IMG/VR virus record: IMGVR_UViG_3300030107_007304
Location: 1-24,314 of that record
Origin: a virus
DNA length: 24,314 bases
Direction: 5' to 3' (one strand)
The position numbers and the translations under genes are program-made. A model generated the notes under the pieces. The model worked only from the letters and a program-made list of their open reading frames with translations, did no database searches and was not told the origin of the DNA. Each line of letters begins with the position of its first letter. Positions within the stretch are counted from its first letter, which is position 1. This document shows, piece after piece, positions 2,545 through 13,128 of the stretch.

Positions 2545-3174
2545 ATGGCACCACGCAACAAGAAACCATTCCAGCCCAAAGATCTTGACCCCACGCTTGC
2601 GGCGATGGAGCCGCGCTCTGCAATGGAACTCAAGAACCTTAGCCTCAACACAAGCATCTCTGAGGAGACACACTGCTTCAGAGCATCTGTCTACATCAAC
2701 GGCAAGCGCATGTTCACTGCCTCTAACGGTGGCAAAGGTGGCCCAAACTTTTACTCGCCATCTGATTTCGGTAAAGGCAAAGAAGCGTTTGAAGAAGCCA
2801 TGGCAATCGCCCGTGAAGAAGCCAAGCAATATACGCTCAAGAAGATTGAGCTAGGCGAGGACCTGCAGTGGGCGATAGATGCATTCGGTGATGGCAAGAG
2901 TGACGAACTAATCGATTGGCTGATCACGGATCTGATCAACGAACAACTGACGCTCAAAGAAATGCGCAAGACGTTGAAGAAAAAGATCACTATCTACGAC
3001 CCAAAGAAAAAACAAATGTTTAGCCTTGGAAAAGACAACCCCACCAATGGAAACATAGATAAGTACAAAGATCACTTCGCCACAAAAAGCGACGAAAAGA
3101 ATGCCAAAGACTGGGTATGGCTCAACACGATCCCAGAGGCGGAAGCCTACAAGTATTGGAGGACTGCATCATGA
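2545..3174 (+). CDS. Hypothetical protein, 209 aa
   Basis: A soluble, charged protein of unknown function. The start follows CAGGAGGC, 9 bases upstream, inside the previous gene. The N-terminus is basic and proline-containing (residues 1-15). Residues 45-75 carry a glycine-rich beta-type segment (NGGKGGPNFYSP), then a long charged helix (about residues 80-100). Residues 145-165 contain a lysine-rich stretch (KKKITIYDPKKK) that could contact nucleic acid. It ends in an ATGA overlap with the next gene. Confidence 0.7.
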   Translation: MAPRNKKPFQPKDLDPTLAAMEPRSAMELKNLSLNTSISEETHCFRASVYINGKRMFTASNGGKGGPNFYSPSDFGKGKEAFEEAMAIAREEAKQYTLKKIELGEDLQWAIDAFGDGKSDELIDWLITDLINEQLTLKEMRKTLKKKITIYDPKKKQMFSLGKDNPTNGNIDKYKDHFATKSDEKNAKDWVWLNTIPEAEAYKYWRTAS

Positions 3175-3668
3175 GTTCAATCGACGGCAAGATTTCCTGT
3201 GACCGCTGTGGTGAGTACAACCATGAGCGAAGCATGGTGTTTCACGGCACCACCGCGATGTGCATTGGATGCGATGATGAGGTCGAAGAGTTGGAAGAGA
3301 TGTGTTGGTTTGGTGGTTTGTGCATTGGCGATGATGAGATCGAAGAGTTGGATTCATCCGAAGACATCTTCTTCCCCTGCGACGAGTGCGGCACGATGAC
3401 TGCTGAACACATGCTTGCAAAAGTTCCAACCAACGCAGGCACGCTCAACTGCTGCCCGATGTGCTACAGCGAATGCTACGAAGACCCTCGTGGTGTTTCG
3501 ACTGAGTACACCATCAACTACCTTGAAGTAATCAAGCACGAAGTGAGGGTCACGGCCATGAGCCGTGCCCAAGCGGAGCGCATCACATTGTCTGGGAACA
3601 AGGCGTTTGCCTTGCGTAAAACCCGACTGCCTCAGACTATTGGCAAATCAATAGTTAAGGAAACTTAA
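3171..3668 (+). CDS. Zinc-finger protein with two CxxC pairs per half
   Basis: A 165-residue protein. The ATG at 3171 is chosen because TTGGAGG lies 8 bases upstream and the ATGA overlap couples it to the previous gene; the upstream extension to 3117 lacks a site. Cysteines 10 and 13 pair with 31 and 34, and 70 and 73 with 95 and 98, making two probable zinc ribbons. Between them is an acidic duplication (CIGCDDEVEELEE, then CIGDDEIEELDS). The C-terminal 50 residues look like a beta-strand domain (TEYTINYLEVIKHEVRVTA). The family is not recognised; nucleic acid or protein binding is likely. Confidence 0.7.
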   Translation: MSSIDGKISCDRCGEYNHERSMVFHGTTAMCIGCDDEVEELEEMCWFGGLCIGDDEIEELDSSEDIFFPCDECGTMTAEHMLAKVPTNAGTLNCCPMCYSECYEDPRGVSTEYTINYLEVIKHEVRVTAMSRAQAERITLSGNKAFALRKTRLPQTIGKSIVKET

Positions 3669-3669
3669 G

Positions 3670-3864
3670 ATGTTAAATCTTAGAATTCGTTTTGTGGACA
3701 GCAGGGAAGATTTAATTGTTCCGTGCCCAATTAATTACATGATCAGCGGCAACTACTGGGTTTTGTTTAAGTATCTATCTGAGTTGTTACGCACCAGATG
3801 CATCCATGAGGATGAGGTTCTAGAAGTGAATACGACTGAGCTTCCGCTCACTGAGGTCGCATAG
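3670..3864 (+). CDS. Hypothetical protein, 64 aa
   Basis: A short soluble protein that starts one base after the previous stop, with AAGGAAACTTAAG upstream as ribosome binding site. It begins with a predicted beta strand (LNLRIRFVDS) and has a central helix (VLFKYLSELLRTR). No motif recognised. It belongs to the 2375-4196 operon. Confidence 0.6.
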   Translation: MLNLRIRFVDSREDLIVPCPINYMISGNYWVLFKYLSELLRTRCIHEDEVLEVNTTELPLTEVA

Positions 3865-3866
3865 CC

Positions 3867-4196
3867 ATGGACGATCTTATCTCATCAACAGACCCCTACG
3901 AAAAAGAAACCCGTGGTGGCATGAGAGACAACTCATCCACCATGCATCAATACAAAGTTGAGCGTGAGTTCACATGCTTGTGGTGTGATGTGAAGTTCAA
4001 AAGCACGCAGGCATCAGCCAAGTACTGCTGTCAGGCGCATAGAAGCAAAGCCTTTCGAGCAGTGAGGAGAATTGATAAGCCAAAGCGGATCACCCAGTTG
4101 AGGCGTAGAGGCAAGGGTTTTAGGCCACCGATTGCGTTGGTTCGTTACCATGCGTCCTCTTCACCACCATCGGATGGCTCTTCGTCCGATTCGTAA
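3867..4196 (+). CDS. Small zinc-finger protein (CxxC, CCxxH)
   Basis: A 109-residue protein with one probable treble-clef or MYM-like zinc finger: C37, C40, C54 or C55, and H58, then the basic helix HRSKAFRAVRRIDKPKR. Such fingers occur in small phage DNA-binding proteins. The start at 3867 has GAGGT about 10 bases upstream; an internal ATG at 3921 is possible. The C-terminus is serine-rich and its last 52 bases overlap the 3' end of the terminase gene on the other strand, a tail-to-tail arrangement. It is the last gene of the plus-strand accessory region. Confidence 0.65.
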   Translation: MDDLISSTDPYEKETRGGMRDNSSTMHQYKVEREFTCLWCDVKFKSTQASAKYCCQAHRSKAFRAVRRIDKPKRITQLRRRGKGFRPPIALVRYHASSSPPSDGSSSDS

Positions 4197-4843
4197 TCAT
4201 CCTCTTCACCTAAATCATCCTCACTTGAATCTTCATCCTCACCATCAAGGAGCCCCGCTGCGGGCTCCTCATCTTCCGTCACATAATCCTCCTGCTCCTC
4301 AAACTCCGCCTCCTCAACATCCATCACGCTGTCATCTACCACTGCAGCGCGCAAGCCAGGGATCAACTGGTTCTTATCGAGCAGAGCATTCAGCCTGGCC
4401 TCAACTTCTGATCGATCCATCTGATCGATTCGCCCGTGCTTGATCTCTTTCTTCTCAACCATCAAGCCCGCAAGTTTTGCTCTGCCCAACTCTGCTGTGA
4501 CGGCTGCACCATACGAGCCATCCTCAACTGCACGGTCTCTGATCATCTGCAAGTCACGCGCAACCTTCTCAAACGTGATCTCATACTTCTTCTGCTGCGC
4601 CTCTTGGAGCTCACGAATCTTCATCTGCAAGTTCATGTATCTGGGATCATGCAAAAGCACATACGCAATTTGCCGTGGGTTTGAGTAGCCTGCTCGATGC
4701 GCAGCTTCGGTGTTAGTCAGATCGTGATACACATAGTGCTGAATAAACGCCTGCTGCTTCTTTGTGAACGGCTTTTCTTTGTGCCTCTCAGGCAGACTTC
4801 GCTTTGGGTTATTCAACATATCCACCGCTTGATTCTTGGCCAT
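4145..4843 (-). CDS. terS: Terminase small subunit
   Basis: A 232-residue DNA-packaging protein. Residues 26-56 (FTKKQQAFIQHYV, then NTEAAHRAGYSNP) match the N-terminal helix-turn-helix of the Terminase_2 small subunit family, which recognises phage DNA and feeds it to the large subunit. Residues 70-165 are helical, as expected for the oligomerisation core. The last 60 residues are extremely acidic (runs such as EDEDSSEDDLGEEDD), longer than usual. AAGGGA lies 8 bases before the ATG. No large subunit is in the window; the gene is last on its strand, so terL must lie elsewhere. A stable hairpin at 4248-4269 lies inside the acidic-tail coding region. Confidence 0.85.
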   Translation of the reverse strand: MAKNQAVDMLNNPKRSLPERHKEKPFTKKQQAFIQHYVYHDLTNTEAAHRAGYSNPRQIAYVLLHDPRYMNLQMKIRELQEAQQKKYEITFEKVARDLQMIRDRAVEDGSYGAAVTAELGRAKLAGLMVEKKEIKHGRIDQMDRSEVEARLNALLDKNQLIPGLRAAVVDDSVMDVEEAEFEEQEDYVTEDEEPAAGLLDGEDEDSSEDDLGEEDDYESDEEPSDGGEEDAW

Positions 4844-5491: not shown

Positions 5492-5540
5492 AGCCCCGCT
5501 TGGCGTCTTTATCCTTTTGTTCGTCTTGCGGGGCTTTTTT
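5492..5540 (+). terminator. Intrinsic terminator facing against the flanking genes
   Basis: AGCCCCGC (5492-5499) pairs with GCGGGGCT (5528-5535) across a 28-base loop, with a T-run through 5540. It would work on the plus strand, yet both neighbouring genes are on the minus strand. The non-gene gap 5418-5551 otherwise holds nothing clear. Confidence 0.6.
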
Positions 5541-5551
5541 ATGCCTGCTCG

Positions 5552-6355
5552 TCACACCCCGCACATCCCGTCGCACTCGTCACCAAAGTCCATCACGATC
5601 TGATCCGCTGCTGGGTCAGCCAAGTCTGCTTGATCTAGGGGCACAAGTGATCGGTGTATGTAGATCTTGCTTGTTGTGCCACGAAAGTCATCGCGTATGT
5701 GTTTGTCCACAGCCACCGCCTGCTCCCATGATTTCGGGTCATTGGCCTTCATCTCACGCCATGTTGCGTTGTCATGATAGGGACAGAAAGTGCATGCGCT
5801 TTTGCGCGGCAGTTCATTGTAGCCATTGTCACGCATCCAGCGCAGGCAGTGCCACCGTGACATGTGTTTCTCAATCAAGGGCCATCGGTTGTTGCACCAC
5901 TTCTCTGGCGCGTCTTTCATACGCTGTATCTCGTCAGTGCTGATACCTATCCACTGTTCAACTGTGTCTGCCGGGATACGTTGACGAGTTTTGTAGCCCG
6001 CCAGTTCGCGTAGTTTGCGTTGGATCGGCGTGATCTTGTAGTCGCGGGTACACTGACGCATGAGTATGCCCTCACCCACCCCGCTTGGTGATGCAGTGAA
6101 GAACGGCGGTGATGCGCTACGATCCTCTGGGTTCATGATGTCATCGAGCAGACTGCCTCGTGTGACACGCAGAACGGGGAACGGCAGCTGACTTTCTAGC
6201 CAGTCGAGCCACTCGTAGATGTGATCAGGCTCTGCTTGTGTGTCTGCAAAGATCGCGTAATCAGGCATGGGCGTGATCTCACCTTTCGCTGCCATTAATG
6301 CCATCACGCTTGACTGTACACCTGCGCCTAGGCTAATTACTGTTAGCTTTTGCAT
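5552..6355 (-). CDS. PP-loop ATPase, phage PAPS reductase-like family
   Basis: A 267-residue adenine nucleotide alpha-hydrolase-type protein. The PP-loop is SLGAGVQSS (residues 8-16), followed by the IFADTQAEP strand typical of the PAPS reductase/FAD synthetase group. A central QWIGISTDE segment and a C-terminal SACTFCPYH (C188, C191, H194) suggest a metal site; two more cysteines end the protein (CDGMC). Such phage proteins are usually labelled phosphoadenosine phosphosulfate reductase, but several relatives carry out RNA thiolation or DNA phosphorothioation, so the substrate is open. The ATG at 6355 is preferred over the longer GTG start because GGAGAAGG lies 7 bases upstream. It overlaps the preceding gene by 23 bases. 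Confidence 0.75.
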   Translation of the reverse strand: MQKLTVISLGAGVQSSVMALMAAKGEITPMPDYAIFADTQAEPDHIYEWLDWLESQLPFPVLRVTRGSLLDDIMNPEDRSASPPFFTASPSGVGEGILMRQCTRDYKITPIQRKLRELAGYKTRQRIPADTVEQWIGISTDEIQRMKDAPEKWCNNRWPLIEKHMSRWHCLRWMRDNGYNELPRKSACTFCPYHDNATWREMKANDPKSWEQAVAVDKHIRDDFRGTTSKIYIHRSLVPLDQADLADPAADQIVMDFGDECDGMCGV

Positions 6356-6632
6356 ACCCGTGCCTTCTCCAGTAAACACCAGTCGCGCTGTCGTTTGCTT
6401 TCTCTATCTCATCCTGATGATCGGCCCAGAAGATATCATCGCTCACTAAGAAGTCGCCTCTCACTTGAGCCACTTCAAATCGAAGCCTTGGGTATCTTTC
6501 TTCCATGTGTTCTTTGACCTGCATGGCAGAATCTTTTTCTGTGTACCGGCCATCCATAAATGGTGTGCCGATAAATAGAACAACCCACCCGACTTGAAGC
6601 GTTGAGTTTTTTTGTGTGTTTACTTCATTCAT
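6333..6632 (-). CDS. Hypothetical protein, 99 aa
   Basis: A small soluble protein of unknown function. The start ATG at 6632 has GGAGGA 7 bases upstream and lies directly after the primase stop (6635). It has predicted beta strands early (LQVGWVVLFIGTPF), then a helix with KEHMEERYPRLRFEV. It is co-transcribed between the primase-helicase and the PP-loop gene. Confidence 0.65.
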   Translation of the reverse strand: MNEVNTQKNSTLQVGWVVLFIGTPFMDGRYTEKDSAMQVKEHMEERYPRLRFEVAQVRGDFLVSDDIFWADHQDEIEKANDSATGVYWRRHGYAKANSN

Positions 6633-11304: not shown

Positions 11305-11313
11305 GAGAACAAA

Positions 11314-12183
11314 GTGAAAGATCTATCAGTGCAAAATGCGATGCTCAAAGCATCAGTGAACGGCTTCTACAGCATGCAGAAGACACGCATTCGGATCGGC
11401 AACAATATCGTTGCCAACTTCAAGATAAAGATCGGGCAGGAGCCTGGCAAGCCTGAAGAAACCTTGGATGCAGATGCAAAGATGCTGCTATCTAACCTTC
11501 GTGTCAGCTACAAAAAGATCACCGATGGTGTTGCTGGCATGAACCCTCGCAAGTTTAAGGAAGATGGTTTGATCAGTGAGTACAGCGAGTTCTCTTTGGT
11601 CAAGCAGTACTTCGATCTGGTCGAGGCTGAAGAGAATGCGCTCAAACAGATTACCTACAGCGTCAAGCAGTTCCCTATATACCGTGCATTCCTAGAGGAT
11701 GTGAAAGGTGTGGGCCCAACCATGGCTGCGGTGATCATCTCAGGCTTCGATATTCACAAGGCGCAGTATGCGTCCTCTTTGTGGGCGTATGCTGGGCTTG
11801 ATGTGGTTGGCGACAAAGGCAGGTCTAGGATCAAAGAGCACCTAGTTGATCAGACCTACATCGATGCCGATGGCAAAGAGCAGACCAAGAAAGGTATCTC
11901 GTTCAATCCGTTCATGAAGACGAAGCTGATCGGCGTGCTTGGCTCGTCGTTTGTAAAGACCAACGGCAAGTACCGTGAGATCTACGACAACTACAAGCAT
12001 CGTATTACCCACATGCCTGCTCATGTTGAGAAGACCAAGGGGCACATCAACAACATGGCGATACGCTACACGGTGAAGCGGTTCCTTGTGGACCTGTACA
12101 CCGCATGGCGCACGCTAGAGGGACTGCCGGTTGCGGATGAGTATTCCAAAGGCAAGCTTGGGATCAATCACAAGGTTGCTTGA
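11314..12183 (+). CDS. Tas protein of a TIGR-Tas system, nuclease-less (IS110/Nop-like)
   Basis: A 289-residue protein. Residues 126-165 (FLEDVKGVGPTMAAVIISGF, then ASSLWAYAGLDVV) match the helix-hairpin-helix and following core shared by IS110 transposase C-terminal domains and the Nop domain of box C/D RNP proteins. Residues 193-270 (KGISFNPFMKTKLIG, then GKYREIYDNYKHR and KRFLVDLYTAW) follow the same order as IS110. There is no N-terminal DEDD/RuvC domain and no HNH motif, so it cannot be a transposase. It fits the nuclease-less Tas class (TasA, as I recall the naming). AGGAG lies 8 bases before the GTG. Its stop lies inside the first repeat of the 36-nt array. Expected role: binding 36-nt guide RNAs and, through them, DNA. 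Confidence 0.82.
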   Translation: MKDLSVQNAMLKASVNGFYSMQKTRIRIGNNIVANFKIKIGQEPGKPEETLDADAKMLLSNLRVSYKKITDGVAGMNPRKFKEDGLISEYSEFSLVKQYFDLVEAEENALKQITYSVKQFPIYRAFLEDVKGVGPTMAAVIISGFDIHKAQYASSLWAYAGLDVVGDKGRSRIKEHLVDQTYIDADGKEQTKKGISFNPFMKTKLIGVLGSSFVKTNGKYREIYDNYKHRITHMPAHVEKTKGHINNMAIRYTVKRFLVDLYTAWRTLEGLPVADEYSKGKLGINHKVA

Positions 12184-12835
12184 GCCACATTTGCGCAGAA
12201 AACCATGGACTCAAAGCGAGCCAAGTAATTTTAGAAAACCAGTCGCAGAAAGCGAGCCAGTAGCCTAGAGAAACCCGCACATAGCAAGCGAGCCACATCT
12301 GGCTAGAAAACCACAAAACTGAAGCGAGCCATCTAGACAGAAAAAACCAAGCTTACCAAGCGGGTCATTCCAAGGAAGACAGCCAAGTAAAATTAGCGAG
12401 CCACTTCGGCTTAGAAAGCCATAAAACCGAAGCGAGCCATAGACGCGAAGAAAACCAGGCTTACGAAGCGAGCCAAAAGTGCACAGAAGACCAACAATGA
12501 AAAGCGAGCCAACGTGGAGGAGAAAACCAGCGAAGTTAAGCGAGCCAATATGCTAGAGAAAACCAGAGAACTGAAGCGAGCCAGTGCGGAGGAGAAAACC
12601 AGCGAGGTTAAGCGAGCCACTTCGGGCTAGAAAACCACAAAACTGAAGCGAGTCAAAAAAAGCAAGAAAACCATTCATTGGGAGCGAGCCAGAGTCCTCC
12701 AGAAAACCAGAACAGACGAGCGAGCTAGAAGGACATAGCAACCCGTCCTTACGAAGCGAGCCAAGGTGGTCAAGAAAACCAAGCGACTGAAGCGAGCCAA
12801 TAGGGTGAATACCCCCAAAAGGACATAGCGAATCA
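12179..12835 (+). repeat. TIGR array: 36-nt units with two 9-nt spacers each
   Basis: Repeat 1 (consensus AGCGAGCCA) ends at 12187 and every 36 bases to 12799: 18 copies, 14 exact. Repeat 2 (AGAAAACCA) ends at 12205 and every 36 bases to 12781: 17 copies, 11 exact. All spacers are 9 nt. A/B pairs in order: catttgcgc/tggactcaa, agtaatttt/gtcgcagaa, gtagcctag/cacatagca, catctggct/caaaactga, tctagacag/agcttacca, ttccaagga/agtaaaatt, cttcggctt/taaaaccga, tagacgcga/ggcttacga, aaagtgcac/acaatgaaa, acgtggagg/gcgaagtta, atatgctag/gagaactga, gtgcggagg/gcgaggtta, cttcgggct/caaaactga, aaaaaagca/ttcattggg, gagtcctcc/gaacagacg, gaaggacat/tccttacga, aggtggtca/agcgactga. A decayed unit follows to 12835. In known systems such arrays are processed to 36-nt guide RNAs. 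Confidence 0.9.
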
Positions 12836-12855
12836 AACAAACAAGAGTGAAAGTT

Positions 12856-13128
12856 ATGGAAGATGACTTTGAAATGGAAATGGAAGGCGGCAGTGAGGAT
12901 CACGAGTACGCCATGGACTTGATCAGAAACTTGGTGAAGGTCAGCAAAGAAGAGCTAGACCCACGCATTCTGTTTGAAGTCATGATGGTTTATTCACTGG
13001 GTTGGAACTTAGCTCATGGTGATCATGAACTTATGACCAAGCTATTGCCAAATATATTGGAGAGCATCAATGATGGCTCTTACACCGATGTGGCAGAAAT
13101 CATGGAGGACGAAAGGATATGTCATTAG
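12856..13128 (+). CDS. Hypothetical acidic protein after the array, 90 aa
   Basis: A very acidic N-terminus (EDDFEMEMEGGSEDHE) is followed by a helical region (AMDLIRNLVKVSKEELDPRILFEVMMVY). Either GTG at 12847 or ATG at 12856 could start it; ATG is preferred, with AAGAGTGA upstream, but neither site is strong. It begins 20 bases after the last decayed array unit and overlaps the next small gene. Function unknown. Its place beside the array makes it a candidate partner of the Tas system, though it may simply be the next gene of the operon. Confidence 0.6.
   Translation: MEDDFEMEMEGGSEDHEYAMDLIRNLVKVSKEELDPRILFEVMMVYSLGWNLAHGDHELMTKLLPNILESINDGSYTDVAEIMEDERICH

What the first reader, a model, noticed from the sequence alone, without database searches (positions are those of the whole stretch)
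12179..12835. TIGR guide array with perfect 36-nt period, not CRISPR
Seen: 18 copies of repeat 1 and 17 of repeat 2 alternate with 9-nt spacers at an exact 36-nt period over 17 units, without a single insertion or deletion, while spacers vary. Known, from memory: TIGR-Tas arrays have two alternating repeats, two 9-nt spacers per unit and 36-nt mature guides whose spacers A and B read opposite DNA strands. Inference: this phage carries 17 dual-spacer guides. The two repeats share the pattern AGnnAnCCA, so each unit may be an ancient doubling of an 18-nt half-unit.
Basis: partly seen in the sequence, partly recalled or inferred. Interest (0 to 1): 0.97.

Follow-up and report, generated by a model that had tools for sequence, protein, structure and literature searches.

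The report
Phage TIGR guide-RNA array with TasA
A marine phage carries a TIGR-Tas system, a recently described RNA-guided DNA-binding system unrelated to CRISPR, made of one nuclease-free TasA protein and 18 two-part guides; it is a new member of a known family, and close relatives carry many different guide sets whose targets could not be found.

Summary
From 12179 two 9-nt repeats (edge AGCGAGCCA, loop AGAAAACCA) alternate with 9-nt spacers at an exact 36-nt period. The full span is 18 units plus a degenerate terminal edge repeat. The interpretation also holds. The gene directly upstream (11314-12183), whose stop codon lies inside the first edge repeat, encodes a 289-aa protein matching the solved TasR (9mty, E 8e-14) and TasH (21kl, E 2e-6) by sequence. 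Its modelled fold matches TasR, TasH, then IS110 recombinases. It has no nuclease domain, so it is TasA of TIGR-Tas (Faure et al. 2025). A 36-nt array was confirmed downstream of 40 of 42 relatives in IMG/VR (38-99% identity), and the repeats covary as the TasR structure predicts. It is a new member of a known kind. New detail: the cassette is accessory (many close relatives lack it; one looks like a deletion scar); about 250 distinct guides occur in about 25 related arrays with interior mosaic turnover; one unit is a conserved hairpin. Guide targets were not found in about 1 Mb of related phages, about 0.9 Mb of T4-like phages or four IMG/VR pattern scans. The biological role stays inferred: RNA-guided DNA binding without cutting.

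The parts
11314..12183 (+). tasA: nuclease-free Tas (Nop-domain) protein, 289 aa, GTG start
   Evidence: TasR 9mty E 8e-14 and TasH 21kl E 2e-6; fold match to TasR/TasH/IS110; dN/dS about 0.05-0.11 where it could be estimated
12179..12826 (+). [quoted passage not shown]
12179..12187 (+). first, 5'-truncated edge repeat CTTGAGCCA, containing the tasA stop codon (TGA 12181-12183)
   Evidence: same arrangement in many relatives
12719..12754 (+). unusual unit GAAGGACAT-AGCAACCCG-TCCTTACGA whose two spacers pair with each other (stem AAGGAC/GTCCTT); conserved in at least nine other arrays
   Evidence: RNA fold z -3.8; copies in L001, L002, L003, L004, L008, L013, L021, L022, L023
12791..12826 (+). 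conserved last unit ATAGGGTGA-ATACCCCCA-AAAGGACAT, with a degenerate loop repeat
   Evidence: also last in L001, L002, L003, L005-L007, L016, L021, L052
12827..12855 (+). degenerate terminal edge repeat AGCGAATCA plus leader of the next gene; no terminator found after the array
11305..12817 (+). extent of the accessory cassette (tasA plus array) that is missing in relative L080
12856..13128 (+). small conserved gene downstream (90 aa from ATG; function unknown), present with or without the cassette

Best explanation
This is a TIGR-TasA system of a marine tailed phage. Inferred from the known family: tasA and the array are transcribed together, the transcript is cut inside each edge repeat into 36-nt tigRNAs, and a TasA dimer loads each one. 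Spacer A pairs with one strand and spacer B with the other strand of an 18-bp DNA site. As TasA has no nuclease, it would bind, unwind and bend the site and so block transcription or replication there, most likely in competing mobile elements (target identity is a guess). Shown here: the protein's homology and fold, the array's exact anatomy, base-pair covariation in the edge repeat, purifying selection on tasA, and rapid turnover and accessory status of the cassette.
For: Sequence and profile matches to TasR and TasH; best structure matches are all TIGR-Tas complexes, then IS110 recombinases, then weakly Nop5. No RuvC or HNH family match, and no strand is predicted in residues 1-120. An array of 36-nt period was confirmed downstream of Tas in 40 of 42 relatives of 38-99% identity; the other two are L223 (array further downstream) and L212 (contig ends too soon). 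Edge positions 2-7 pair in 356 of 376 repeats (shuffle maximum 340) with G-C, G-U and A-U, and 3-6 pair in 365 of 376 (shuffle maximum 348) with C-G and U-A, as the TasR structure paper describes. Loop repeat with an AAAA middle, as in TasR. dN/dS about 0.05-0.11.
Against: No target found for any guide in relatives, in T4-like phages or in four IMG/VR scans. No small-RNA data. Box D reads AG here rather than the UG of TasR. No rho-independent terminator follows the array, unlike the typical case. The AlphaFold model is only moderate (pLDDT 68, pTM 0.66). Covariation counts are inflated by shared ancestry of the repeats, and the parse of L235 mixes some edge and loop repeats.
Confidence: 0.88

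Rival explanations
1. Same system, but the guides act on host chromosomal genes or host defence loci (gene silencing for take-over or counter-defence) rather than on competing mobile elements.
For: No excess of target matches in related phages or T4-like phages; TasA lacks a nuclease, which suits silencing.
Against: Guides turn over fast between close relatives, which fits changing competitors better than fixed host genes; host unknown, so not tested.
Confidence: 0.3
2. The guides act on the phage's own or close kin's DNA (packaging, replication, segregation or superinfection exclusion).
For: The paper suggests DNA bending or ParB-linked roles for some TasA loci.
Against: In about 0.96 Mb of own and related loci no guide of 248 matches at 0 mismatches, and the counts at 1-2 mismatches do not exceed shuffled pairings.
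Confidence: 0.07
3. The repeat is a coding repeat or a structural DNA element rather than a guide array.
For: 36 is a multiple of 3, so long reverse-strand frames stay open (12411-12620, 12553-12903).
Against: Spacers are random-like while repeats are fixed; relatives contain units shifted by one base and insertions that break any frame; the array follows a Tas gene throughout the relatives.
Confidence: 0.01
4. A CRISPR array or an IS110 transposon with a bridge RNA.
For: Interspaced repeats; weak Transposase_20 match (E 0.003, below the curated cut-off).
Against: Two alternating 9-nt repeats; no predicted strands in residues 1-120 where a DEDD domain should lie; TasR and TasH are nearer than IS110 by fold; the guide is a long array, not one two-loop RNA.
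Confidence: 0.01

Closest known systems
TIGR-TasA with a dual-repeat array (e.g. Flavonifractor plautii FpTIGR; Faure et al. 2025, PMC12045711)
   Same: Solo Nop-type Tas protein, two alternating repeats, 9-nt spacers, 36-nt unit, array downstream of the gene.
   Different: Different repeats (AG...CCA boxes), more units (18; usually 5-15), array starts inside the tasA stop codon and runs into the next gene's leader without a terminator; FpTasA itself was not compared.
TasR (PDB 9mty) and TasH (PDB 21kl and related)
   Same: Homologous protein and fold; edge/loop repeats with box C (CCA) and covarying edge pairs.
   Different: Those carry RuvC or HNH nucleases and cut DNA; this protein has neither. 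Box D is UG in TasR.
Microcystis phage Mvi-JY20 hypothetical protein (PP438412.1, 21367-22092)
   Same: Closest match among annotated phage records (29% identity, E 1e-17) and followed by an unannotated 36-nt dual-repeat array.
   Different: Repeats ATGCGAGCC/ACGAAACCC; the cassette is flanked by 37-bp perfect direct repeats.
IS110/IS621 recombinase and archaeal box C/D Nop5
   Same: Shared fold, weaker.
   Different: Extra catalytic DEDD or fibrillarin-binding domains; different guide RNAs.

Membership tests
TIGR-Tas (dual-repeat arrays) | Adjacent gene for a Nop-domain Tas protein | tested here: met
   Sequence and fold matches to TasR and TasH; gene ends inside the array
TIGR-Tas (dual-repeat arrays) | Two alternating 8-12-nt repeats with two spacers of about 9 nt per unit | tested here: met
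TIGR-Tas (dual-repeat arrays) | Box C (CCA) and box D motifs shared by edge and loop repeats, with covarying edge pairs | tested here: met
   CCA in both repeats, box D reads AG in both; positions 2-7 and 3-6 covary
[quoted passage not shown]
   Degenerate terminal edge AGCGAATCA is present, but no + strand terminator follows
TIGR-Tas (dual-repeat arrays) | Processing to 36-nt tigRNAs | not testable with these tools
   Needs small-RNA sequencing
TIGR-Tas (dual-repeat arrays) | Spacers A and B pair with opposite strands of one DNA target | tested here: inconclusive
   No targets found; one guide pair in swapped order is weak support, 22 of 2000 shuffles
TasR / TasH | N-terminal RuvC or HNH nuclease domain | tested here: not met
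   No such family match; residues 1-120 predicted helical with no strand
CRISPR-Cas | One repeat of about 25-36 nt with spacers of similar size, and cas genes | tested here: not met
   Two 9-nt repeats; among the ten window proteins scanned the only Cas-like hit is a phage Cas4-domain exonuclease among recombination genes
IS110 transposon | DEDD catalytic domain and a single bridge RNA | tested here: not met

The most novel reading that the evidence does not exclude
These phages add and swap whole dual-spacer guides within the array from a shared pool of targets, without adaptation genes and not at one end, and distant phages have captured the same 18-bp site independently in opposite orientations. 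That would make this phage group a system in which the unknown origin of TIGR spacers can be read out.
Probability: 0.2. Interest if true: 0.75.

Novelty: new member of a known kind. Interest (0 to 1): 0.5.

Why it matters
The role of nuclease-free TasA, the natural targets, and how TIGR arrays gain guides are stated open questions in the discovery paper. This group offers about 25 related arrays with some 250 distinct guides in otherwise similar phages, both with and without the cassette, which allows gain, loss and guide turnover to be followed.

Tried and rejected
(1) Target search: 248 guide pairs as A + rc(B), gaps 0-2, against about 0.96 Mb of own and related loci; no excess over shuffled pairings or other geometries. 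(2) IMG/VR exact scans for four shared guides: chance-level hits with no common gene. (3) One hit lay in what looks from memory to be a clamp-loader (gp62-like) gene of a T4-like phage; 80 T4-like loci were fetched and tested, no significant excess. (4) The idea that related guides differ by synonymous codons (one family reads K-T-E-A-R) was not supported by a position-modulo-3 test over all families. (5) No Rfam match, no PADLOC match, no relatives found in a scan of GTDB genomes. (6) My unit parser drops some degenerate units (e.g. window 12359), so guide totals are lower bounds.

Full report
Observation. From 12179 to 12835 two 9-nt repeats alternate at an exact 36-nt period: edge AGCGAGCCA, spacer A, loop AGAAAACCA, spacer B. 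All 14 exact edge copies and all 11 exact loop copies in the 24.3-kb window lie in this stretch, against about 0.1 expected for each. The stretch holds 18 units plus a terminal degenerate edge AGCGAATCA. No unit is longer or shorter than 36 nt. Spacer columns are close to random, apart from a mostly-A last base of spacer B.

Protein. The gene directly upstream, 11314-12183, has its stop codon inside the first edge repeat CTTGAGCCA. Its product matches the solved TasR chain 9mty (E 8e-14) and TasH 21kl (E 2e-6), more strongly with a 15-member profile. A moderate AlphaFold model (pLDDT 68, pTM 0.66) finds TasR and TasH complexes first in the PDB, then IS110/IS621 recombinases, and archaeal Nop5 only weakly. 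No nuclease family is matched and the first 120 residues are predicted helical with no strand, so this is the nuclease-free type, TasA. It is under strong purifying selection (dN/dS about 0.05-0.11 in the pairs where it could be estimated).

Relatives. IMG/VR holds 42 relatives found with the profile. In 40 of them a 36-nt period was confirmed downstream of Tas, down to 38% protein identity. In L223, the same contig as L017, the array lies further downstream, and in L212 too little sequence follows the gene. Edge repeats differ between clades in a pairing-preserving way: positions 2-7 are G-C, G-U or A-U, positions 3-6 C-G or U-A, more often paired than any shuffle (relatedness inflates this). 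The discovery paper reports the same kind of covariation for TasR edge repeats and an A-rich loop repeat (PMC12045711).

Accessory cassette. A helicase search returned 80 related loci, nearly all of the new ones without an array. Of the aligned ones, several are 85-92% identical in the flanks and carry other small genes in the slot between the SSB-like gene and the helicase. In L080 the upstream and downstream genes abut and the segment 11305-12817 is missing, yet the leader with the terminal edge AGCGAATCA remains; the other array-less relatives inspected lack that leader. A deletion that left the last edge repeat is the simplest reading.

Guide turnover. About 25 arrays give at least 266 distinct A/B pairs, 248 of them with 9+9 spacers. 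Close relatives share runs of units but differ by interior insertions and losses, not by growth at one end. Six pairs of units share one spacer exactly and not the other, against about 0.6 expected by chance, which suggests recombination inside repeats. One unit occurs in swapped A/B order in two distant phages (2 mismatches of 18; 22 of 2000 shuffles have such a pair). A swapped guide would address the same site, as the paper shows for TasR. This is weak support for tandem targeting. Two units are conserved across arrays, one of them a hairpin (12719, z -3.8), and may be structural rather than guides.

Targets. None found. Guides do not match related phages beyond chance, nor T4-like phages, nor any common gene in four IMG/VR scans. 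This speaks against targeting of close kin, within about 1 Mb. The host is unknown and host targeting was not tested. That the phage is marine is inferred from the sample series of its relatives, not tested.

Verdict. Member of TIGR-Tas, type TasA, by protein, array anatomy and repeat covariation. RNA processing and DNA targeting are inferred from the family. The cellular role remains open.

Noticed in passing
L024 2888-2924 and 4017-4053 (PP438412.1, 21330 and 22459): In Microcystis phage Mvi-JY20 the Tas gene and an unannotated 36-nt dual-repeat array (3666-3982) lie between two perfect 37-bp direct repeats; a 29-base core pattern from that repeat, searched with up to 3 mismatches, occurs only at these two places in the 108-kb genome. 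They could mark a mobile or excisable cassette, or be duplicated promoters.
   Followed up: partly
window 12719-12754; L001 11334, L002 1482, L004 4403, L008 7999, L013 7369, L023 6741: A unit whose spacers A and B are complementary to each other, with an odd loop repeat (AGCAACCCG), is kept in arrays of distant relatives; it may serve processing or array stability.
   Followed up: partly
L015 about 11386-11580, L017 about 4500-4720, L018 about 5520-5740: A small ORF with cysteine motifs (MRMKECACGKLIKP...) sits between two parts of the array in this clade.
   Followed up: no
L237 (236-kb contig), Tas 3001-3921: A 36-nt dual-repeat array with edges AGTGTATCA/AGTGTACCA and loop AGAAACCCA follows a 38% identical Tas in a very large phage contig.
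   Followed up: no
window 5552-6379: Phosphoadenosine phosphosulfate reductase-like gene (PHROG 424, E 1e-47).
   Followed up: no
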